Part shown: positions 2,430 through 23,214 of the stretch, in pieces
How positions within the stretch are numbered: the stretch's first letter is position 1
Layout: every line of letters begins with the position of its first letter
IMG/VR virus record: IMGVR_UViG_3300025138_012612
Location: 1 to 24,232 of that record
Length of the DNA stretch: 24,232 bases
DNA from: a virus
Reading direction: 5' to 3' (one strand)
Translations under genes and position numbers: made by a program
The notes under the pieces: model-generated
Told to the model about the DNA's origin: nothing
Databases searched by the model: none
What the model saw: only the letters and a program-made list of their open reading frames with translations

Positions 2430-2791
2430 TAACTTTTTGTTATTAACGGTGTAGTCACTAGGGCAGTGCCAATACTAGTGGTAGCTCTTATTTCATTTTT
2501 ACAATCGCTGCAGCGATAGATAGTATCCTCAGTTAATGATAATATTACATCTTGTGTCGAACCGCACGGGCAACTGACTGTCATTGTATTATCGTATTTT
2601 GCTTTTTCTGATACAGCATTAATTTCAACAGCTCTTTTTATTAAAAAATTTTCATATATAGAATTAAAAAAATAAAAGAATAAAAATTGTAATATTGTAA
2701 CTAACCCAAACACTAACCAATCTCTAAAGAGTATACCAAATATACCACTAACTAAAAAAGTTAATGTTAACGACGTTATTAGTTTCTTCAT
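2429..2791 (-). CDS. Small membrane protein with zinc-ribbon-like domain
   Basis: A 120-aa protein with two hydrophobic segments near the N-terminus (about residues 5-22 and 26-44), predicted to be a membrane hairpin, followed by a soluble domain. That domain has paired cysteines, C74-P-C76-G and C94-S-D-C97, as in a zinc ribbon. The C-terminal 20 residues are Thr/Ser-rich. Start and stop codons overlap neighbours by one base on each side (TAATG). Its place in a late-promoter operon suggests expression during particle assembly or lysis. A holin-like role is conceivable from size and topology, but the zinc ribbon is not a holin hallmark, so I leave the function open. Confidence 0.72.
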   Translation of the reverse strand: MKKLITSLTLTFLVSGIFGILFRDWLVFGLVTILQFLFFYFFNSIYENFLIKRAVEINAVSEKAKYDNTMTVSCPCGSTQDVILSLTEDTIYRCSDCKNEIRATTSIGTALVTTPLITKS

Positions 2792-3171
2792 TACTTTATT
2801 TTACTAACCTTTTTACTAATATCAACCAATTTACCTTTTAATTTAACTATCTCTTTACCGACACTGTCTAATGATCTTTTATCTTTAATAACTGTGTTAG
2901 TATTTGCTATCTTTAATAACTCTTCTAAATTTTGTAAGGATACAAAAGTATTAGCAACTATGTCGTCAAATTCATTTAATGGGTATGGTACATTTTCTGG
3001 AGCTACATCACTTCGATTCTGTTTGTTCATTATATCTTGAACACTGGATGGCTGGGCAGGATACTCTGTTTTTTGACCGGGTTGGTCTCTTCCAACGTCG
3101 GGCATCATTTCTTGTCCAGCGTCTTCCTCAATTACTTTTACGAAGTCTTCAAATTTTTTGTATGATTGCAT
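2791..3171 (-). CDS. Unknown 126-aa late protein with possible capsid-targeting N-terminus
   Basis: First gene of the minus-strand late run. The N-terminus MQSYKKFEDFVKVIEEDAG resembles T4 capsid-targeting peptides, with a possible prohead-protease site I-E-E before Asp (after about residue 17). A Gln/Pro-rich linker follows (about residues 20-60), then a helical region rich in Leu, Lys and Val. It is divergent from the 138-aa gene at 3194, and both start at the two ends of one palindromic late promoter. Its ATG is 5 nt after the box. No family recognised; a head-internal protein is a reasonable guess. Confidence 0.7.
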   Translation of the reverse strand: MQSYKKFEDFVKVIEEDAGQEMMPDVGRDQPGQKTEYPAQPSSVQDIMNKQNRSDVAPENVPYPLNEFDDIVANTFVSLQNLEELLKIANTNTVIKDKRSLDSVGKEIVKLKGKLVDISKKVSKIK

Positions 3172-3184
3172 ATAAATATTTATA
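3171..3184. promoter_or_regulatory. Palindromic bidirectional late promoter
   Basis: TATAAATATTTATA is a perfect 14-bp palindrome carrying the T4 late box TATAAATA on both strands. Read on the minus strand, the box (3184 to 3177) ends exactly 5 nt before the ATG of the gene starting at 3171. On the plus strand, the box at 3171-3178 is followed by a second perfect box at 3181-3188. Confidence 0.8.
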
Positions 3185-3188
3185 AATA
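3181..3188 (+). promoter_or_regulatory. Late promoter box TATAAATA
   Basis: Perfect match to the T4 late consensus, ending 5 nt before the ATG at 3194. A second plus-strand copy lies 10 nt upstream (3171-3178), inside the palindrome. By T4 spacing, the start site would be at the ATG from this box, or about 10 nt upstream from the other. Confidence 0.82.
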
Positions 3189-3193
3189 ATAGT

Positions 3194-3610
3194 ATGACCT
3201 TATACCAAAAACGATTTAAAAAGTTTTTATCTGAACAAGATGATGAAAATACCGAGTTAACAGACCAAGAAGCAATGGCTTCTACGCTTGAACCTGAGAC
3301 CTCTCCAGAAGATTTCGATGTTGAAGCTCCTGCAGGGGGGGAAGGCGCAATCGGAGCTCAATCAAAACAAATGTTTGATGAGTTAAGTGGTTGGGTTTCT
3401 GAGATGGATAGATTTTCAGAATATTTAAACGGTACATCAGATAGTATTCAAACTTCATTAAATGCTGCAGAACCAGATACTATTTTTGATAGTATATCAA
3501 ATTCTGAAACAAAGAAAATTGCTAGAGTTGCAATGGAAATATCATCACTAAGTGAAATCTTAAAAGGTTACTTAGCAGGTGCTAATGATCCTAAGTATAA
3601 ATTTAACTAA
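3194..3610 (+). CDS. Predicted head-internal protein, 138 aa
   Basis: The N-terminus MTLYQKRFKKFLSEQ has the short aromatic/basic form of T4 internal-protein targeting peptides and an L-S-E site at residues 12-14 that fits the T4 prohead protease pattern (L/I-x-E before the cut). A second weaker candidate is D-V-E before Ala at about residue 44. Residues 15-55 are acidic and low in complexity; the rest is helical. No family recognised. It is driven by a perfect late box 5 nt before the ATG, with no Shine-Dalgarno visible. It heads a plus-strand block of five genes that share this type of N-terminus, so I infer packaging into the prohead core. Confidence 0.75.
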   Translation: MTLYQKRFKKFLSEQDDENTELTDQEAMASTLEPETSPEDFDVEAPAGGEGAIGAQSKQMFDELSGWVSEMDRFSEYLNGTSDSIQTSLNAAEPDTIFDSISNSETKKIARVAMEISSLSEILKGYLAGANDPKYKFN

Positions 3611-3627: not shown

Positions 3628-3882
3628 ATGCAAACAGATCAAGATTTAATTTTTGAAGCTTATACTCAATTTAACGATACACAAAGTGAAAATGAAGAAT
3701 CATCAGAAGGGGCTGTAAATTTACTAGAACAACTTAAAGAAGAAATGCCTGAATTGGAAGATAAGGTAAATCAAATACTTGGAAAGGTATTCGATGCTGT
3801 TGATGTATTAAAGCAAGAGTCTTATGTTGATGACCCTCAATTACAGGCAGCACACGAAGCCCTTATAGAAGGTAATTTTTAA
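3628..3882 (+). CDS. Predicted head-internal protein, 84 aa, leader-family copy 1
   Basis: Starts MQTDQDLIFEAYTQ, with I-F-E before Ala (cut after residue 10) as expected for a T4-type prohead protease site. The same leader opens the next two genes. The mature part is acidic and helical; the pattern LEQL...PELEDKVNQILGKVFDAV from about residue 33 matches the 89-aa neighbour in spacing of Leu, Pro-Glu-Leu and Ile-Leu, so the two are probably paralogues. A further L-I-E before Gly lies five residues from the C-terminus. The preceding late box is 5 nt from the ATG. Role inferred: small protein packaged in the head. Confidence 0.75.
   Translation: MQTDQDLIFEAYTQFNDTQSENEESSEGAVNLLEQLKEEMPELEDKVNQILGKVFDAVDVLKQESYVDDPQLQAAHEALIEGNF
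3631..3669 (+). repeat. Leader-encoding repeat, copy 1 of 3
   Basis: A 39-bp segment encoding QTDQDLIFEAYTQ. It is repeated with base changes at 3887-3925 and 4165-4200 (the latter slightly shorter in clear identity). The core codes for D-Q-x-L-I-F-E-A-Y-T in all three. Many differences are at third codon positions, pointing to old duplication with protein-level selection rather than a recent copy. Confidence 0.8.
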
Positions 3883-3883
3883 T

Positions 3884-4153
3884 ATGAAAACCGATCAAGA
3901 CTTAATTTTTGAAGCATATACTAAACCTAAGACTCTAGATGAAGATTTTGGTAATACAAACTATGACGTCGATGAACCTTCTTGTTTCGAAAGACTTGAA
4001 GAGCTTATGAATAGTAAGCCTGAACTAGCAAGTGTTTTGAAACCTATATTAGACGAAATGCAGGATGCTCTAATGGAAATTGATAAAATAGATATCAATA
4101 ATTTTGACGCACAAGAAGTTTTTAATAGTCTTAATAGATTATATCCATTTTAA
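3884..4153 (+). CDS. Predicted head-internal protein, 89 aa, leader-family copy 2
   Basis: Starts MKTDQDLIFEAYTK, with the same I-F-E before Ala site as the gene upstream. A second possible site, L-D-E before Asp, is at about residues 18-20. The helical body (LEELMNSKPELASVLKPILDEMQDAL) follows the spacing of the 84-aa protein, supporting tandem duplication. It starts 1 nt after the previous stop; a GAAGG about 11 nt upstream may act as a weak ribosome site, and coupling is likely. One Cys at about residue 34. No known family recognised. Confidence 0.74.
   Translation: MKTDQDLIFEAYTKPKTLDEDFGNTNYDVDEPSCFERLEELMNSKPELASVLKPILDEMQDALMEIDKIDINNFDAQEVFNSLNRLYPF
3887..3925 (+). repeat. Leader-encoding repeat, copy 2 of 3
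   Basis: Encodes KTDQDLIFEAYTK. It is nearly the same 39-bp module as at 3631-3669, with changes mostly at wobble positions. Confidence 0.8.
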
Positions 4154-4158
4154 TAATG

Positions 4159-5037
4159 ATGAATAAAGATCAAAATTTAATTTTCGAAGCTTATACCCAA
4201 ACTTTAACTGAAGGTTGGGAAGCTGGTACTTCTAAAGCTCCAAAAGGTAAATCATTTGATATGAAAAAAGGCGGTGCTCCAAGTAATGTAGACGCTGCAA
4301 GAGATGGTTCAGGTGGTAGATATAGAAAAACTCGCCCACCCAGTGCTCAATCTAATAAGACTCATAGTGAAAGTGAAGAATATGGTAATGATGAATTAAT
4401 GGTAAATGGTGTTGAATATATCGTACAAGCAGAAATATCAGGTGACAATGTTGAAATAACTACTCTATTTAAGTACGACGCAAAGCTTGATGATCATATT
4501 GAAGTAGATTTAGGCAGTATCTCACCACAATTGAGGCAAGATATTGAAGATTCTGTTAGAAACGATGTAGGTAGAGAGAATAACTTAGAGAATACCCCTC
4601 TAGAAGAACTTCAAGAATTAACACCTGAAGAGTACGAGATTGCTCAAACAATGGAAACTTTTGATGATGATGATTGGGGATATAATGAAATTCAAGAATT
4701 CTACTTTAGAAGAAGAGAAGGTGGCGAAGATAACGAAAGTAGAGAAAAAAGTATAATGAGAGGTAGAGAAGCTGCTAGTGCTGAGCAAGAAATATTTTAT
4801 AAAGAGCACGGTGCAGATGCATTTGAAGACCATTACGGGTTTGAATACCCTCAAGAAGAAGAATCTTTAGGCGATTCTTCTGATTTTGAATTCAAAGCTG
4901 AAAAGTTCGCTGATTCTATTGGAGATGCTGAGTTAGAATACTTAGTCAATCTAAGTGGAGGACAATTTGAGATATTAAAAGGATTTTTGCAAGATGAAAT
5001 GGGTTACCGTGATCTTGGTCAATATAAACGTAACTAA
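4159..5037 (+). CDS. Predicted head-internal protein, 292 aa, leader-family copy 3
   Basis: The frame has two consecutive ATGs (4156 and 4159). The second is chosen because it gives MNKDQNLIFEAYTQ, which aligns without a gap to the two upstream leaders, with I-F-E before Ala at residue 10. A second site, L-T-E before Gly, follows about ten residues later. The remainder is much longer than in the neighbours: a Gly/Lys/Ser-rich linker (about 20-65), a small domain with MVNGVEYIVQAEISGDNVEI (about 75-120), then a very acidic, Arg/Glu-rich helical region. No family recognised. It starts 5 nt after the upstream stop. Its leader on a different body is why I read this as a targeting tag. Confidence 0.75.
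   Translation: MNKDQNLIFEAYTQTLTEGWEAGTSKAPKGKSFDMKKGGAPSNVDAARDGSGGRYRKTRPPSAQSNKTHSESEEYGNDELMVNGVEYIVQAEISGDNVEITTLFKYDAKLDDHIEVDLGSISPQLRQDIEDSVRNDVGRENNLENTPLEELQELTPEEYEIAQTMETFDDDDWGYNEIQEFYFRRREGGEDNESREKSIMRGREAASAEQEIFYKEHGADAFEDHYGFEYPQEEESLGDSSDFEFKAEKFADSIGDAELEYLVNLSGGQFEILKGFLQDEMGYRDLGQYKRN
4165..4200 (+). repeat. Leader-encoding repeat, copy 3 of 3
   Basis: Encodes KDQNLIFEAYTQ. It matches the modules at 3631 and 3887, with D to N at the residue before Leu and several silent changes. Confidence 0.75.
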
Positions 5038-5045
5038 AATTTAAC

Positions 5046-5912
5046 ATGAGAACATTTCAAGAATTCCATAATGATAGACTTTTAAATGAATTGGCACCGC
5101 TTGCCTTACCAGCAGCAGGATGGCTAGCCGCATCCGCGAAGGTTAAAGTAGGCGCCGACCTAGCTATTGCATTTACAGCTGGGATCGCAGCTAAGTTAGG
5201 TATCGATTACTTTACATCTGATAATATTAGTACTGCATCAGATGCGATGGCAACCGGAACCCTACCTGAATTCGACGCATTCACACAAATCCCGGCTGGG
5301 CAGAGCGTGCTTAATGGCCCTGGTGATTGGATCACATCATTTGAAACTCCTATAACCACAGCAACTCCAGAACAAATTGTCGATGCTGTAGCACCTCATG
5401 TAACTAGTGCAGGTCAAGTTGCGGCTACCACTGAATCCGCAGCAGGTATCAGTAGTGCATTGGATATGCCGGGTAATTTGGTGTCATCAATTTTGACATA
5501 TGCTGCAGGAATAGGTCTTTCAACTCTTGATGTTTGTTTGATCTTAGGAGCTGGTACTGTTTTAGCTGCTGCAGGTGGTTTTATGTTTTTTAAAAACGAC
5601 GGACCAAATAAACTTAAAAATCTTCTTAATAAATTAAAAAATCTTCTTAAAAAGGCTTTAGAGAAGGCCATTAAGTTACTAAAGATAGCCGGTCGCGCGG
5701 CAATATATGCATTTATGTTTCTTGGTAAGGCATTACTTGACGCTTTAATGGCCGCTTTTGGATTTCTTGTCGGTTTATTAGGAGCAGGTTTAATGGCTAT
5801 AATTACCAAGGTAATTAGTAAGCTGAGAAATAAAGATAAGGAAAAAGATGAAGAAAAAGATGAGGAAAAAGATGAGGAAAGTAATATTTTAGATGGATCG
5901 AGTTCTAAATAA
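5046..5912 (+). CDS. Predicted packaged membrane-active protein, 288 aa
   Basis: The N-terminus MRTFQEFHNDRLLNEL closely resembles the T4 internal-protein start MKTYQEF, with an L-N-E site (cut after residue 15). After it come hydrophobic stretches at about 16-30 and 36-50, a long one at 145-182, a cationic amphipathic helix at 186-214 with two KLKNLL heptads, two more hydrophobic segments at about 213-258, and a charged tail of KDEE repeats. A protein made for the head yet with several membrane segments suggests ejection and insertion into the host membrane, but this is inference. G+C is clearly raised in the 5' part: 36 of 60 bases at 5101-5160, unlike its neighbours, hinting at separate origin. 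It starts 8 nt after the previous stop, with no promoter of its own seen. Confidence 0.72.
   Translation: MRTFQEFHNDRLLNELAPLALPAAGWLAASAKVKVGADLAIAFTAGIAAKLGIDYFTSDNISTASDAMATGTLPEFDAFTQIPAGQSVLNGPGDWITSFETPITTATPEQIVDAVAPHVTSAGQVAATTESAAGISSALDMPGNLVSSILTYAAGIGLSTLDVCLILGAGTVLAAAGGFMFFKNDGPNKLKNLLNKLKNLLKKALEKAIKLLKIAGRAAIYAFMFLGKALLDALMAAFGFLVGLLGAGLMAIITKVISKLRNKDKEKDEEKDEEKDEESNILDGSSSK
5610..5651 (+). repeat. Two tandem 21-bp heptad-coding repeats
   Basis: Units 5610-5630 and 5631-5651 encode KLKNLLN and KLKNLLK (residues 189-202). They form the start of a positively charged amphipathic helix. The DNA copies differ at only a few bases. Confidence 0.8.
5841..5876 (+). repeat. Three 12-bp tandem repeats coding EKDE
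   Basis: Units GAAAAAGATGAA, GAAAAAGATGAG and GAAAAAGATGAG at 5841-5852, 5853-5864 and 5865-5876 encode an acidic/basic tail after the last hydrophobic segment. Such a repeat is prone to change in copy number. Confidence 0.85.
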
Positions 5913-6944
5913 CTAACTATTTTTAATCTCAGTTAATAATAATTTAGCTTTAAGACCTGAATGAGTATTTTTTAATATAAATTCAGGTTTTATTTTGTCT
6001 TTATTACCGGTAACGCATATATCATTAAAGTCTTTAAAACGCTTTAACTCTTTAGGCCATATAAAAACCTTTTCATTATTATCAGCCAATATAATGCTTT
6101 TACTTAAAGCTGCTTTATCGCAGTACTGGTTATCTAATACATAAATCTTTTCATATAAGTTTAGTTTATTGATCTGCTCCTTCTGTAAACTAGTAAACAT
6201 CTTATCGCTTCTTTCAGTAATACCACAAGTAGCTAAACCGTTTTCAACAAAATAACTATCAATCGGACCTTCAAATATAAACACGTTATCTAAATTAGAA
6301 TTTATATTTTGCATACCGTATAAGCTTCTTTCTGCTCCTACCTTACTAAGATATTTCGGTCTTTCAAATAGATCTTTTTTAGTTAAACCTCTAGATTGAT
6401 AAAATATTATATCATCATTTTCATCGTAAAACGGTAATATTAATCTATTTTTATGTACTACATCTTTTAATGATATATAAAACGTTTTAGGTTTATTAAT
6501 ACCTTTATCTAGTTTTCTATCTCTAATTAATTGTAAGGCTGTTTTGACAACTGCATTATCTTTATAGTACTCAATTTGACTTACATCAGATAAGTTAATA
6601 CAATCTTCTGGTAGACTTTTATCTATTACCTTTTTAACTTCTTTAGGTTCTTCTATAGGTAAAATCTCTATATCAAACTCTTTAACTTCATTTATAATTT
6701 CATGTAAAGATTTATTCGTTACTTCAGTTATAAATGTAAGAGCCTTTTTACTATATCCACAGTTATGACAATATGCTAACTCTTTATCAGGTATATAATA
6801 GAATCGTTTTTTCTTACCCCACGAGTTACCTTCTTTACAAATAGGGCAACAACCATTATATGATTTATTGTATTTATTATATGAGATCTTATAGATATTC
6901 TCATATAAAACGTTTACAACGTATTGCTCTGGTATAACTATCAC
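5913..6944 (-). CDS. 61: DNA primase, T4 gp61 type
   Basis: Primase that would make RNA primers for lagging-strand synthesis together with helicase gp41. It is 343 aa, almost the same length as T4 gp61 (342). An N-terminal zinc-binding module has C33-P-I-C36 and C59-H-N-C62-G; the TOPRIM-type catalytic core has IFEGPIDSYF at about 223-232 (E225, D229), then VLDNQ with a following Asp. The start is GTG at 6944: no ATG lies in frame nearby, and a sigma70-like promoter places its -10 hexamer 6-12 nt upstream. It lies 36 nt after the 81-aa late gene and abuts the convergent plus-strand gene with no gap. Confidence 0.9.
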   Translation of the reverse strand: MIVIPEQYVVNVLYENIYKISYNKYNKSYNGCCPICKEGNSWGKKKRFYYIPDKELAYCHNCGYSKKALTFITEVTNKSLHEIINEVKEFDIEILPIEEPKEVKKVIDKSLPEDCINLSDVSQIEYYKDNAVVKTALQLIRDRKLDKGINKPKTFYISLKDVVHKNRLILPFYDENDDIIFYQSRGLTKKDLFERPKYLSKVGAERSLYGMQNINSNLDNVFIFEGPIDSYFVENGLATCGITERSDKMFTSLQKEQINKLNLYEKIYVLDNQYCDKAALSKSIILADNNEKVFIWPKELKRFKDFNDICVTGNKDKIKPEFILKNTHSGLKAKLLLTEIKNS

Positions 6945-8119: not shown

Positions 8120-8369
8120 TCTTTTTGTATTGGGATTCTATAACTTTATACACATACTTCGGTATTTTTTCAACAAATTTAATTATTTCCTTTTCTAAAC
8201 CGGCTTCAAAATCTTTTTGAGGTATTTTAGTCGTAATCATTTCAGGCATCCTAAGAAAATTATACGTCTGTTCCTTTTTATCACGGCGAATAAATGCAAA
8301 TAACTGACCAGCATATTCACCATGGTGGCATGCATACATGTTTCCAACTTTTATCTTAGTTTTATCCAT
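8091..8369 (-). CDS. Unknown 92-aa protein
   Basis: Small basic protein starting MDKTKIKVGNMYACHHGEYAG, with a beta-rich N-terminal half (VGNMYAC, QLFAFIRRD, YNFLRMPEM) and a Lys-rich helical C-terminal half ending NNRRK. I do not recognise it. It overlaps the end of rmlB by 8 nt and the start of the nuclease gene by 29 nt, so it sits inside one operon. The charged tail suggests nucleic-acid or protein contact, but that is a guess. Confidence 0.7.
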   Translation of the reverse strand: MDKTKIKVGNMYACHHGEYAGQLFAFIRRDKKEQTYNFLRMPEMITTKIPQKDFEAGLEKEIIKFVEKIPKYVYKVIESQYKKNENTNNRRK

Positions 8370-9315
8370 AAATTTTCACTAATTCTTTTAATTGCTCGTC
8401 GAAATCATTGTATAATGGTTCATATAGCAAGTCTTTTTTGATTTTATTACAATTAATACTATATCTAAAGTCATGACCGAGCCTATCTTCAACAAAAATA
8501 ACGTTTTTATCTAGATCTTTCCCCATAATTGTACATATTTTATCAACTAATTCAATATTTGTTAGTTCTAACCCTGATCCGATGTTATAAACTTCATTTT
8601 TACCTTGAGTACCAACGGCCCAGACTGCTAAATTGTGATCATGCACATGTACCCACTCGCGAACGTTTAAACCCTCACCATATATTGGTACTTTCTTACC
8701 TTCACTCAAGGATTTTATGATTGTTGGTATAAATTTTTCATTATGCTGATTAGGACCATAGTTATTACAACATCTCGTTATACTTATGTTACAATTAAAC
8801 GTTTCAATATATGACATACATAAGAGATCGCTTGATGCCTTACTTGCAGCATAGGGAGAACGAGGTGCAATAGGGGTTAACTCAGTAAATGATGGATCAT
8901 TGAACCCTAGATGTCCGTAAACCTCATCTGTACTAATATGTACAAATCTACCGTAATTATTATTAATTTTACGGAAACATTCTAACATATTTTGAGTACC
9001 TAGTACATTTGATTCAATAAAAACTTTTGGACCACTAATACTGTTATCAACATGTGATTCTGCTGCAAAATGGAAAATATAATCAAACTTATCATTAGTT
9101 AAGAAAACATTTTCCAACTCTAATGTATTTACAATGTCTAATTTATACTCTTTATCACATAAACCCTTAACATAATCTTTATTTGATGCATAACCATCTT
9201 TGTCTACACATGTTATTCTATGTTGAGGGAAGTTATCTCGTAGGAATCGTATAAAATTACCACCTATGAATCCGTAACCCCCGGTTACTAATATATTTTT
9301 ACTTTCTTTTTGCAT
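8362..9315 (-). CDS. rmlB: dTDP-glucose 4,6-dehydratase (RmlB)
   Basis: Extended short-chain dehydrogenase that converts dTDP-glucose to dTDP-4-keto-6-deoxyglucose, the entry step to rhamnose and other deoxy sugars. It is 317 aa, typical for the family. Motifs: NAD-binding TGGYGFIG (11-18), FHFAAESHVDNSI (81-93), STDEVYG (128-134) with the family's T-D-E catalytic triad, and Y155-AAS-K159. A further family signature, NNYGPNQ, follows, with EKFIPT and NVREWVHVHDH after it. It overlaps the cytidylyltransferase upstream by 17 nt. RmlA and RmlC are not in the window, so the final sugar is unknown. Confidence 0.92.
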   Translation of the reverse strand: MQKESKNILVTGGYGFIGGNFIRFLRDNFPQHRITCVDKDGYASNKDYVKGLCDKEYKLDIVNTLELENVFLTNDKFDYIFHFAAESHVDNSISGPKVFIESNVLGTQNMLECFRKINNNYGRFVHISTDEVYGHLGFNDPSFTELTPIAPRSPYAASKASSDLLCMSYIETFNCNISITRCCNNYGPNQHNEKFIPTIIKSLSEGKKVPIYGEGLNVREWVHVHDHNLAVWAVGTQGKNEVYNIGSGLELTNIELVDKICTIMGKDLDKNVIFVEDRLGHDFRYSINCNKIKKDLLYEPLYNDFDEQLKELVKIYG

Positions 9316-9748
9316 TTTTTATAATATCTGGATTTTGCTTTATCGTCTGAGTCGTTATTAGATCTTTTATTTTGGTTGTAGACCATTCATGAGATCTAGT
9401 TGTATATATAACTTTACCAGGTAAATCATCACCAGTAAATCGTTTACCAATATAATCTTCACCTAATATTCTTATATCCGGTTTGAAGAATTTAATTAAT
9501 TCTATTAATTCTTCTTCAGTTTGATACATATACACATCATCAACATACTGAATAGCCATTAAAGTCTTATATCTTTCATAATAAGGTATAACAGGTTTAT
9601 ATTTTGTATATCTTGTAGCTGAAGGATCTTTCTGCAAGAACACTAAAAATCTATCACAGTGTCTTTTAGCTTCTTCAAAAGTATATATGTAACCGGGATG
9701 TAATAAATCAAAGTTACCAGCTGTAAAACCTACTAATTCTTTTTCCAT
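9299..9748 (-). CDS. Nucleotidyltransferase-like protein with altered HxGH motif
   Basis: Small (149 aa) member of the cytidylyltransferase fold, the family of glycerol-3-phosphate cytidylyltransferase and heptose-phosphate adenylyltransferase. GNFDLLHPGYIYTFEEAK (11-28) is the nucleotide-binding start; the normal HxGH reads H17-P-G-Y20 here, so the second His is Tyr. The C-terminal RSHEWSTTKIKDLI matches the family's S-T-T-x-I element. The start has a clear ribosome site (AAAGGA about 6-8 nt upstream). It lies between RmlD-like and RmlB genes, so I infer activation of a sugar or polyol phosphate, with catalytic competence uncertain because of the Tyr. Confidence 0.8.
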   Translation of the reverse strand: MEKELVGFTAGNFDLLHPGYIYTFEEAKRHCDRFLVFLQKDPSATRYTKYKPVIPYYERYKTLMAIQYVDDVYMYQTEEELIELIKFFKPDIRILGEDYIGKRFTGDDLPGKVIYTTRSHEWSTTKIKDLITTQTIKQNPDIIKNAKRK

Positions 9749-10605
9749 TTTAATTCCTTTCCAATTAAAGAGGCATTTAATCTCAAATAATGTTCTTCAT
9801 CACCAAAGTCGAAATTAAAATCATCTTTAGCTTTTTGATTAGATAATACACAATTACTTCTATTACATTTTATTTTTAATTCATCATAAGGTATAAACTT
9901 CCAATCATCATTTTTAATACCATACTCTTTTAAAATATCAGTAACTTCTTTAGTACCTAATGAGCTATGATGAACTGCATTATATATACCAGCTTTAAAA
10001 TTTTTCATTACAGTTTCAATAAATTCACATAGAACTACCATATCTGTTTTACTATTAACAAAATCAATTAAATTAGGGTAATTGATAAGTTTAGTTAATA
10101 GATTTTTCTTAGTTAATTTACTTTCGATTGGCATTCTAATTCTAATAATATTGGTAAAATTAGTATCAAGTATTAGTTCAGATATATGTTTTGTTTTACT
10201 ATAGAAACTTGATTGCTTTTCAAACACTCCAAAGTTTGGTATATCGTCTTCTGTATACTCTTTATCATAACCCCCATATATACAACCAGAACCTATATGG
10301 ATAAAATTCATGTCTAAAGATTTACAAATACCTTCAATAGCTACCGGTACGTTTACATTATAATAAAAACAATCTTCTTTATTATCTTCACAACCATCTA
10401 CATTAGGTACACCCGTATAACCTGATGTATTAATAACCGTGTCAATATCTTCAGATAGACAAAAGTTATATAATACTTCCGAGTTAGTGTAATCTAAATC
10501 TTTTTTAGACTTAAAAAATATATTATTATCTGGTAGCCAATGCTCAGATAAATATTTTTCTAGATGATTACCCACGTAACCCTTACCGAGAATTAAAACG
10601 TTCAT
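9733..10605 (-). CDS. NAD(P)-dependent sugar reductase/epimerase, RmlD-like
   Basis: Short-chain dehydrogenase fold, 290 aa. Dinucleotide-binding LILGKGYVGNHL (G7, G9, G12), then DTVINTSGYTG at about 55-65, GSGCIYGG around 105-112 and the catalytic YSKTK (Y135, K139). Overall layout is that of dTDP-4-keto-rhamnose reductase (RmlD) and related nucleotide-sugar epimerases; the exact substrate cannot be read. First gene of an operon that continues through a nucleotidyltransferase, RmlB, an unknown gene and the FEN nuclease. A sigma70-like promoter sits directly before its ATG. Confidence 0.82.
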   Translation of the reverse strand: MNVLILGKGYVGNHLEKYLSEHWLPDNNIFFKSKKDLDYTNSEVLYNFCLSEDIDTVINTSGYTGVPNVDGCEDNKEDCFYYNVNVPVAIEGICKSLDMNFIHIGSGCIYGGYDKEYTEDDIPNFGVFEKQSSFYSKTKHISELILDTNFTNIIRIRMPIESKLTKKNLLTKLINYPNLIDFVNSKTDMVVLCEFIETVMKNFKAGIYNAVHHSSLGTKEVTDILKEYGIKNDDWKFIPYDELKIKCNRSNCVLSNQKAKDDFNFDFGDEEHYLRLNASLIGKELKWKKN

Positions 10606-18277: not shown

Positions 18278-18588
18278 TATCTTCTTTCAATATCTTGTTC
18301 AATACATTCTTTACCATATTGTATTTCACAAACAATACATTCACTATTACTAATATTAGCTGGTTTATGCCAATTCTCAACTGGTATATCAATTATATTA
18401 TTTTTATAATAAAGTTTACCATTAACAGATAGTTCTCCTTCTAATACAAACCAATGTTCACTTCTTTTAAAATGACGTTGATCACTTAATGATTCACCTG
18501 GGTTAATATGCAAAGTTTTTATTTTATAACCATTACGTTCAAATAAAACATTATAGCTACCCCAGTTCGTTTTAGTTATTTTTCCCAT
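18277..18588 (-). CDS. Cupin, mannose-6-phosphate isomerase type II C-terminal-like
   Basis: Single-domain cupin (103 aa from this start). The motif PGESLSDQRHFKRSEHWFVLEGE is the metal-site region typical of type II phosphomannose isomerase/GDP-mannose pyrophosphorylase C-terminal domains (P-G-x-x-L-S-x-Q-x-H-x-x-R-x-E-H-W). A second cupin motif, PVENWHKPAN, follows. ATG at 18588 is chosen over a TTG at 18603. Free-standing cupins of this kind can isomerise mannose/fructose phosphates or epimerise sugars; the substrate is not readable. It overlaps the upstream nucleotidyltransferase by 13 nt and gp41 by one base. Confidence 0.82.
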   Translation of the reverse strand: MGKITKTNWGSYNVLFERNGYKIKTLHINPGESLSDQRHFKRSEHWFVLEGELSVNGKLYYKNNIIDIPVENWHKPANISNSECIVCEIQYGKECIEQDIERR

Positions 18589-19013
18589 CTTTGCAATATC
18601 CAACTGCTACTATTTTTTTTATCTGCTCCACCAACCCCATATTGAAAAATAATTTCTTTATCGTCAAATAACCCAGGAGCCTCTTCCGGAACATTACCTT
18701 GTTTTCTATCTCCTCCATTAGCAAATATGATTCTATTAAAGGGGAATAGCATTATAACATTTCTTATAGCTTCAATTGCAGTACCATCGTCATCATTAAA
18801 GAGAATGCAGTTATCAACGTATTTTAATGCTGATACTATTTCGAACCTTTCTGATAAAGATAAAAAGTTTTTACCTTTTTTTTGTTCTAACCAAGAGTCA
18901 GAGTTAACACCTACAATTAATTTATCACCAAGCTTTCGAGCTGCTTTAAGATATGCTAAATGACCTGAATGTAGTGGGTCAAATCCTCCTGTAACTAATA
19001 CTACCGTTTCCAT
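18576..19013 (-). CDS. Cytidylyltransferase-family nucleotidyltransferase
   Basis: 145 aa protein of the family that includes glycerol-3-phosphate cytidylyltransferase and the heptose adenylyltransferase domain of HldE (RfaE). VTGGFDPLHSGHLAYLKAARKLGD (7-30) has the intact HxGH (H15-S-G-H18) and nucleotide-binding Gly residues; LSLSERFEIVSALKYVD and ANGGDRKQGN follow as in the family. The C-terminus is shorter than in HldE but keeps a S-S-S-W element. It lies between a glycosyltransferase-like gene and the cupin. Reaction inferred: activation of a sugar or polyol phosphate with CTP or ATP. Confidence 0.85.
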   Translation of the reverse strand: METVVLVTGGFDPLHSGHLAYLKAARKLGDKLIVGVNSDSWLEQKKGKNFLSLSERFEIVSALKYVDNCILFNDDDGTAIEAIRNVIMLFPFNRIIFANGGDRKQGNVPEEAPGLFDDKEIIFQYGVGGADKKNSSSWILQRWEK

Positions 19014-21169: not shown

Positions 21170-22468
21170 ATGAATTTACATAACTGGGGTAACAAAAAAA
21201 TTATTAACGAAAGTGCTTCTCAATATATGCAAGGTATGCATGAAGGGGACGATGATTTGGTCCAAGAAGCAAGAGGTAAGAAAATTGCTGATCCGTTAAG
21301 AGCAAAACTAATGGGTATGGAAGATATTAGAGATCTTAAAGGTACAATGACCCCTAGATACTTTGCTACCAAGGTAATTAGATACTTACAAAAAGAAAAT
21401 CCTGAATTAGATTTAGAAGATTTAACTGATGATAATATTCAAAATGCTATTAATATTATGGCCAATGTTTCTAAACCATTAGCTACAAGACCAGATGTTC
21501 AAATTACAACAAGAGCAAGAGGCGCAGCAAAAGAAGGTCTTAAGAAAGGTGATACAGGTTTTGAAACTTTACAATTAAATCTTGGAGGGGATACCACCTT
21601 AAAATCTGAAGGTGGTGTTGGTGAAAATGATTTATATACAGTAGTAAGCGATGGTTTAAAATATAGAGTTACTCTTAATTCTTTTAAAGGTCAAAAACTT
21701 AATTTAGATGATATATCTAAAGATGATATTGTTTCAGTTGTTATTGTTAAACCAAGTGAAACAGAAAAAGTTGATAAATTTGGTGGAGAAATAGAAATGG
21801 GTAATAGAGAAAAATTAGTTGCTGATTTTCCAGAAGGTGAAGAAGATGGTATGTCAAATGCAATCGACGCTGTTAGTTATATGAGCCGTCAAGATGGTGT
21901 TGGTGTTCCAGAAGGTGAAGAAATTGATAAAGAAAAATCAGATTTAAATGATGATGGTGAGATTTCTTCATATGAAAGATCAAGAGGGGTAGCTATTGCT
22001 AAAGCAATGAAGAAAGAGCAAGAAAGGGCTGGTCAATCTCATGCAAGAGCAGTTGCAGATCATTATGGAGATGAAGACGCACCTGCAGAAGATAATATAT
22101 TACCTCTTATAGGAACTGGGCTTGCAGTCGGGGCAGCTGGTGCTGTTGGTAGTAAATTAGCGAAAATGGTTTTACCTAAAGATGAAATCATCGTCAAAAA
22201 AGGAGATGACGAAGATGATAATGATCAATATGAACCTGATGAAGCACCAGAAGATGATCAAATGGGTGGAATGGAACCTTTAGATGATGAAGATGAAGAA
22301 AGATGCCCAGTAACAGGTAAGCTTAGAAAAAAGAAACCGTCAGAATCTGAAGAAGAAGAGCAAGTTGCAATGTCTCAACAAGATATTAATAACTACTTGA
22401 TCAATCAACACAGGCAAAAAATGCAAAATGCTCATTCTCAAGAAAGAATGAATAGACACGGTTATTAA
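21170..22468 (+). CDS. Predicted head-internal protein, 432 aa, with EF-hand loop
   Basis: The N-terminus MNLHNWGNKKIINESASQ resembles a capsid-targeting peptide with I-N-E before Ser (cut after residue 14); V-Q-E before Ala at 31-33 is a second possible site. Residues 40-110 are helical, followed by a mixed domain to about 210. DLNDDGEISSYE (258-269) is a textbook 12-residue EF-hand calcium loop. NILPLIGTGLAVGAAGAVGSKL (309-330) is a glycine-rich hydrophobic stretch, and the rest is strongly acidic with Gln/Asn/His-rich end. It is a lone late gene with its own promoter between two minus-strand operons. It shares TTAA with the QueC stop. Confidence 0.75.
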   Translation: MNLHNWGNKKIINESASQYMQGMHEGDDDLVQEARGKKIADPLRAKLMGMEDIRDLKGTMTPRYFATKVIRYLQKENPELDLEDLTDDNIQNAINIMANVSKPLATRPDVQITTRARGAAKEGLKKGDTGFETLQLNLGGDTTLKSEGGVGENDLYTVVSDGLKYRVTLNSFKGQKLNLDDISKDDIVSVVIVKPSETEKVDKFGGEIEMGNREKLVADFPEGEEDGMSNAIDAVSYMSRQDGVGVPEGEEIDKEKSDLNDDGEISSYERSRGVAIAKAMKKEQERAGQSHARAVADHYGDEDAPAEDNILPLIGTGLAVGAAGAVGSKLAKMVLPKDEIIVKKGDDEDDNDQYEPDEAPEDDQMGGMEPLDDEDEERCPVTGKLRKKKPSESEEEEQVAMSQQDINNYLINQHRQKMQNAHSQERMNRHGY

Positions 22469-23214
22469 TATATTATAGATTTACAATTATTATCTCTATA
22501 AACCGAATCTAACTTATCTTGCTGTTTATAACGTAACGGATCTTGTAATCCTGCGTCTAAAAAACCTTTCAACCTAAGAGCACTACTTGCACTATTAGCA
22601 TCACATGGATATTCACCAGAATAACATGTATATGTATCAGTAAAATTGACTCCAAGCTCAACACCATTTAAAATAATCTCTTTTTTACTCATCTTAAGAA
22701 GAGGAGCTCTTACCCTTACATCTACTTCACGGTTTAATAGACAAATCTGATTCATTTTATCTACAAATTGCACTGAACCATCCCAATAACCAGCAAGACT
22801 ATCAGCTTCTGCTGCACCATACCATACTTCCTCAGCTTCCATTTTTTCTGCATATGATAACAATATGCTTAAAAACATTAAATTACGGAATGGTACATAT
22901 GATTTAGGTTGAGCCTCACCCATTATATCTTTTACGTCAGGTGTATCTATATTATCATTAGTAAGAGAAGATGTATCAGCTATATCCTTAATATAAGTAA
23001 CATCTAATAATTTATTAGTAAACTTAACATTTGTATAATTAAATTTAGCGTTAGCTAATTGCTTTTCAGCTGCTTCTAACTCTTTACTATGACGTTGACC
23101 GTAATTAAATGTTACAGTATGCACTTCATTATACTGTTCGGCTGCCTTATAGAGTAAAACAGATGAATCCATTCCACCAGATAAGGTTATAACTATTTTA
23201 TTCTTCTTCTTCAT
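22465..23214 (-). CDS. queC: 7-cyano-7-deazaguanine synthase (QueC)
   Basis: ATP-dependent enzyme that turns 7-carboxy-7-deazaguanine into preQ0, the precursor of queuosine, archaeosine and 7-deazaguanine DNA bases. It is 249 aa, near the usual length. PP-loop SGGMDSS (12-18), FNYGQRH (36-42), YVPFRN (106-111) and TYTCYSG (195-200) with LRLKGF (213-218) are family marks. Of the four zinc-binding cysteines usual in QueC, C197 and C204 are present; the C-x-x-C-x-x-C run here reads CDANSAS, with Asn and Ser at the last two places. It overlaps UvsX by 17 nt. Neither QueD, QueE nor FolE is in the window. Confidence 0.93.
   Translation of the reverse strand: MKKKNKIVITLSGGMDSSVLLYKAAEQYNEVHTVTFNYGQRHSKELEAAEKQLANAKFNYTNVKFTNKLLDVTYIKDIADTSSLTNDNIDTPDVKDIMGEAQPKSYVPFRNLMFLSILLSYAEKMEAEEVWYGAAEADSLAGYWDGSVQFVDKMNQICLLNREVDVRVRAPLLKMSKKEIILNGVELGVNFTDTYTCYSGEYPCDANSASSALRLKGFLDAGLQDPLRYKQQDKLDSVYRDNNCKSIIY

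What the first reader, a model, noticed from the sequence alone, without database searches (positions are those of the whole stretch)
5046..5912. A packaged, possibly membrane-inserting protein with cationic amphipathic helix
The 288-aa product combines a T4-like capsid leader with several membrane-type segments, a KLKNLL heptad helix and a charged repeat tail. Membrane proteins are odd inside a phage head; ejected pore or channel proteins are one explanation. The 5' half is far richer in G+C than neighbours (36/60 at 5101-5160), suggesting acquisition.
Basis: partly seen in the sequence, partly recalled or inferred. Interest (0 to 1): 0.66.

Follow-up and report, generated by a model that had tools for sequence, protein, structure and literature searches.

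The report
Capsid-targeted membrane-type phage internal protein
An uncultured marine T4-like virus carries a gene whose product has T4's tag for loading proteins into the virus head fused to a membrane-type body, so it is probably injected into the host with the viral DNA, whereas the known injected proteins of T4 are soluble.

Summary
The ORF (5046-5912, 288 aa) is real and its anatomy is as described. Its first seven residues, MRTFQEF, match T4 internal proteins IPI (MKTFKEF) and IPII/IPIII (MKTYQEF), including residues 4 and 7, which carry T4 capsid targeting. A prohead-protease-type site (LNE|L) follows at residue 15. The gene is last of five leader-bearing genes behind a conserved late-promoter motif, in an island whose cargo is swapped between related phages. 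The body has two strong and up to three marginal hydrophobic segments around a cationic amphipathic helix. No homologue was found in the databases searched. Synonymous sites of its 5' half are unusually GC-rich, which modestly supports acquisition. It is not alone: the same lineage encodes other leader-bearing hydrophobic proteins, one pair 61% identical, and one small family occupies two islands. Among 78 sampled M[KR]TFQEF proteins in IMG/VR, 77 are net basic and only one has a membrane-type segment. Best reading: a T4-type capsid-targeted accessory protein with a membrane-inserting payload, ejected to act at the host membrane, more likely in counter-defence or exclusion than as an essential DNA conduit. 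Packaging and membrane insertion remain untested. New variant of a known kind.

The parts
3171..3188 (.). Overlapping T4-type late-promoter motifs TATAAATA, two on + and one on -, between the divergent leader genes 2791-3171 (-) and 3194-3610 (+)
   Evidence: 3 of the 4 exact copies in the window lie here; at least one + copy within 60 bases upstream of the 3194 homologue in 27 of 34 distinct relatives
3194..3610 (+). Leader gene MTLYQKRFKKFLSE|Q, conserved left border of the island
3628..3882 (+). Leader gene MQTDQDLIFE|AY, variable acidic cargo
3884..4153 (+). Leader gene MKTDQDLIFE|AY, variable acidic cargo
4156..5037 (+). Leader gene MMNKDQNLIFE|AY, mosaic cargo whose parts recur in relatives
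5046..5912 (+). The gene in question: 288-aa capsid-targeted membrane-type protein
5046..5090 (+). T4-type capsid targeting leader MRTFQEFHNDRLLNE, predicted prohead-protease cut after E15 (LNE|L)
   Evidence: T4 rules from PMC9026906
5091..5216 (+). Ala-rich hydrophobic N-terminal part of the mature protein (residues 16-57), marginal membrane segments
5217..5465 (+). Polar region (residues 58-140) with no Lys or Arg and 10 acidic residues
5517..5591 (+). Membrane-type segment, residues 158-182
5604..5687 (+). Cationic amphipathic heptad helix, residues 187-214 (KLKNLLNKLKNLLKKALEKAIKLLKI)
5676..5807 (+). Hydrophobic stretch, residues 211-254, the strongest membrane-type segment being 230-254
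5832..5882 (+). Charged repeat tail KDKEKDEEKDEEKDEES, residues 263-279
5913..6944 (-). Primase (gp61-like), conserved right border of the island, convergent with the gene
   Evidence: PHROG DNA primase 4e-31; synteny in relatives

Best explanation
The gene encodes an accessory capsid-targeted internal protein of a marine T4-like phage, of the IPI/IPII/IPIII kind but with a membrane-type payload. Probable course: late expression; the 15-residue leader takes it into the prohead core; the prohead protease cuts after E15; the 273-aa body is stored in the head and ejected with the DNA. Its C-terminal module (helix 158-182, cationic amphipathic helix 187-214, hydrophobic stretch 211-254) then inserts into the host inner membrane, where it most likely helps that infection against a membrane-level defence or competing phages. 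Shown by sequence: leader type, cut-site motif, island, promoter motif, hydrophobic segments. Inferred: packaging, cleavage, ejection, membrane insertion, and the effect on the host.
For: Leader matches T4 IPs at M-[KR]-T-[FY]-[QK]-E-F; in T4 IPIII targeting lies mainly at residues 4 and 7, processing at 8 and 10, and propeptides are 10-19 aa (PMC9026906); here F4, F7, LNE at 13-15. A prohead protease of the T4 family is encoded by two contigs of the lineage. Of 78 M[KR]TFQEF proteins in IMG/VR, 64 have an [ILMVC]xE site at residues 8-25; internal 18-mers have one at a rate of 0.07. Two IMG/VR proteins with this leader hit PHROG internal head/virion protein profiles, mainly at the leader (E 0.003-0.02). 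Five consecutive leader genes follow a conserved late-promoter motif, and cargo is swapped between relatives. Other leader-bearing hydrophobic genes in the lineage: L252/L253:5001 (61% identical, dN 0.22, dS 0.48), L252:5549-6001 with L253:5507-5962 (dN 0.10, dS 0.34), G001 102 kb, and the Gly-rich family of L076 and L253.
Against: No virion proteomics or membrane assay. The body has no detectable homologue, so its conservation cannot be tested. Only two segments are strongly membrane-type. Unlike T4 IPs it is not basic (net -5). The structure prediction is poor (pTM 0.26-0.29). The gene is seen in one window only. Three of the four neighbouring leaders lack the aromatic residue 4 of the T4 CTS (Asp4 or Lys4), so the island's leaders are not uniformly of the T4 type.
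Confidence: 0.55

Rival explanations
1. Packaged internal protein whose hydrophobic helices pack against one another or against partner proteins (core scaffold or DNA-condensing helical protein) and never enter a membrane.
For: The C-terminal part is predicted helical; several hydrophobic segments are only marginal; IPIII also affects T4 head assembly (PMC9026906).
Against: Segments 158-182 and 230-254 exceed any found in T4 IPs, T7 gp13-16 or P22 gp7/16/20 on the Kyte-Doolittle scale; other leader proteins of the lineage are also hydrophobic.
Confidence: 0.22
2. Ejected conduit protein that lines or seals the DNA entry channel, like T7 gp14 or P22 gp7.
For: Packaged membrane proteins of this kind exist; T7 gp14 is water-insoluble and pore-forming (PMC8954989).
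Against: The gene is absent from close relatives with the same primase and neck genes, so it cannot be an essential conduit; general knowledge: contractile-tailed T4-like phages use the tail tube to cross the envelope.
Confidence: 0.08
3. An ordinary membrane protein made during infection (superinfection exclusion, holin-like or takeover protein); the leader is a chance resemblance or is not used.
For: Phage membrane proteins made in the cell are common; hydrophobicity resembles P22 SieA more than known ejection proteins.
Against: The leader motif is far above chance and the gene is last of five leader-bearing genes in a cargo island.
Confidence: 0.13

Closest known systems
T4 internal proteins IPI, IPII, IPIII (capsid targeting sequence proteins)
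   Same: Leader M[KR]T[FY][QK]EF with cut site within 10-19 residues, variable body, hypervariable accessory locus
   Different: T4 IPs are small, soluble, basic inhibitors of GmrSD restriction enzymes; this body is 273 aa, net acidic and membrane-type
T7 gp14 / P22 gp7 ejection proteins
   Same: Proposed storage in the head and insertion into a host membrane after ejection
   Different: No T4 leader, core genes of podoviruses, no Kyte-Doolittle peak above 1.4; no sequence similarity detected
L252/L253 leader-bearing membrane-type protein of the same phage lineage
   Same: MxTFQEF[HY]xD leader, later LxE site, hydrophobic segments
   Different: Body unrelated in sequence (BLASTP aligns essentially the leader only), other genomic island

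Membership tests
T4 capsid-targeted internal proteins | N-terminal CTS with aromatic residue 4 and Phe7 (T4 targeting positions) | tested here: met
   MRTFQEF: F4, F7 (positions from PMC9026906)
T4 capsid-targeted internal proteins | Prohead-protease site [IL]xE 10-19 residues from the start | tested here: met
   L13-N14-E15; cleavage itself not observed
T4 capsid-targeted internal proteins | Phage encodes a gp21-type prohead protease | tested here: met
   Peptidase_S77 in two related contigs, E 7e-34 and 1.6e-34; the window itself is a fragment without it
T4 capsid-targeted internal proteins | Accessory, hypervariable locus | tested here: met
T4 capsid-targeted internal proteins | Basic body (common, not strictly defining) | tested here: not met
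   Net charge -5; 77 of 78 M[KR]TFQEF proteins are net positive
T4 capsid-targeted internal proteins | Present in the virion and injected | not testable with these tools
   needs proteomics
T7 gp14 / P22 gp7 ejection proteins | Sequence homology to the family | tested here: not met
   No match in Pfam or in phage records by tblastn at E<=10; PHROG hits only weak (best 0.012)
T7 gp14 / P22 gp7 ejection proteins | Conserved core gene next to the tunnel and inner-membrane ejection genes | tested here: not met
   Island gene absent from relatives

The most novel reading that the evidence does not exclude
This marine T4-like lineage carries a class of capsid-targeted membrane effectors: several unrelated leader-bearing, membrane-inserting payloads exchanged between islands, preloaded in the head and acting at the host membrane from the first moment of infection.
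Probability: 0.4. Interest if true: 0.72.

Novelty: new variant of a known kind. Interest (0 to 1): 0.55.

Why it matters
T4 internal proteins IPI-IPIII are soluble inhibitors of type IV restriction enzymes (PMC12373910). If T4-like phages also preload membrane proteins, the capsid targeting route delivers effectors to a second site, the membrane through which DNA enters and where membrane-bound defences such as SNIPE act (PMC13190303). The leader gives a testable way to list such cargo across marine phages.

Tried and rejected
Homology of the body: Pfam, PHROGs, PDB sequences, phage tblastn, three IMG/VR scans with different parts (the tool needs exact 8-residue matches), GTDB contigs, and all held loci gave nothing usable. 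Weak PHROG hits to tape-measure and holin profiles (E 0.01-0.5) were rejected as composition matches. Fold searches with the C-terminal model found nothing. A loose leader regex was rejected as too permissive (internal rate 0.14). I found no paper describing membrane-type T4 internal proteins in the open-access library; that does not show that none exists.

Full report
What is there. The window is a 24.2-kb virus record with T4-like replication genes: primase, DnaB-type helicase and UvsX-type recombinase. The ORF at 5046-5912 is intact, 288 aa, and looks coding. Its relatives by neck and primase genes are IMG/VR contigs; known phage isolates are distant.

Leader. MRTFQEFHNDRLLNE matches the T4 IP leaders, read here from the T4 record. 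In IPIII the targeting information lies mainly at residues 4 and 7 and processing at 8 and 10; propeptides are 10-19 residues (PMC9026906). The CTS can carry nearly any protein into the head (PMC7697877). Here residues 4 and 7 are Phe, and L13-N14-E15 fits the protease site. The motif begins 18 ORFs among 1288, with 0.07 expected. Two of them hit PHROG internal head/virion protein profiles; these have a weak PARP/ADP-ribosyltransferase match, recalling T4 Alt.

Island. Between the MSLYQKRF leader gene and the primase, about 20 distinct relatives carry different sets of leader genes, mostly MKTDQDLIFE|AY types, with cargo modules shared and reshuffled. At least one TATAAATA motif, the T4 late-promoter type, lies within 60 bases upstream of the first gene in 27 of 34 relatives. 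No relative carries the 5046 gene, so it is accessory. Three of the neighbours' leaders are related to, but not identical with, the T4 type: MKTDQDLIFEA aligns with MKTYQEFIAEA but has Asp4.

Body. Two segments are strongly membrane-type, others marginal; between them is a Lys-rich amphipathic helix whose moment is reached by 0.04% of shuffles, and the tail is a KDEE repeat. By Kyte-Doolittle the protein is more hydrophobic than T4 IPs, T7 gp13-16 and P22 gp7, 16 and 20, and comparable with P22 SieA. AlphaFold2 without relatives gives helices at low confidence. No homologue of the body was found.

Not alone. In L149/L252 and L253, contigs with a clamp loader closely matching that of G001, the slot beside the clamp loader holds leader-bearing hydrophobic genes. 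One pair, MxTFQEF[HY]xD..., is 61% identical and keeps its hydrophobic segments; another, MKD(N)DL.LIAE, is 83% identical; dN/dS is about 0.46 and 0.3. A small Gly-rich leader protein occurs beside the primase in L076 and beside the clamp loader in L253 (50% identical). In G001 the slot beside the clamp loader is empty, but a 455-aa leader protein with a Gly/Ala-rich hydrophobic C-terminal part lies at 102 kb. Hydrophobic cargo is therefore recurrent in this lineage, while the wider M[KR]TFQEF sample is basic and lacks membrane-type segments.

Composition. The G+C peak is real. Ala-rich coding explains part of it; third positions of the first half hold 38 G/C against 20.3 expected given the amino acids, beyond all 219 overlapping stretches of other genes. 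This favours recent acquisition of the 5' half from a source richer in G+C, without proving it.

Mechanism. Capsid targeting, cleavage, storage and ejection follow from T4 biology and are inferred here. Membrane insertion is inferred from composition. Because the gene is accessory, an essential conduit role is unlikely. T4 IPs inhibit subtype-specific restriction enzymes (PMC12373910), and a membrane-bound nuclease that cuts entering phage DNA is known (PMC13190303), so a membrane-level counter-defence or exclusion role is the most plausible, though no direct evidence for it was found.

Noticed in passing
L095:17024-17644 (-), contig G001 55023-55643: Fe/Mn superoxide dismutase (Pfam E 1e-36) with an N-terminal extension MNYDNLTDLLLE|E resembling a capsid leader: possibly a packaged SOD.
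   Followed up: partly
L139:3515-3958 (+), L146:962-1504 (+): Proteins with leader MKTFQEFIAEA, nearly identical to T4 IPII/IPIII, and a weak PARP/ADP-ribosyltransferase match (E 0.12 and 4e-4), recalling T4 Alt.
   Followed up: partly
L098:7304-8668 (-): 455-aa protein with leader MNKDTELIFE|N and a Gly/Ala-rich hydrophobic C-terminal part, beside the 21170-type leader gene.
   Followed up: partly
L252:5549-6001 (-), L253:5507-5962 (-): Leader protein MKD(N)DL.LIAE|QY with a conserved hydrophobic middle (GISAISLIPFAD), 83% identical; no Pfam, PHROG or isolate match.
   Followed up: partly
window 8362-10605 (-) and 18576-19013 (-): Sugar-nucleotide genes (RmlD/epimerase by Pfam, and nucleotidyltransferase-like by eye) in the phage, suggesting surface or DNA glycan synthesis.
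   Followed up: no
window 22465-23214 (-): ORF that looks like a QueC-type 7-deazaguanine synthesis protein (by eye), possibly DNA modification.
   Followed up: no
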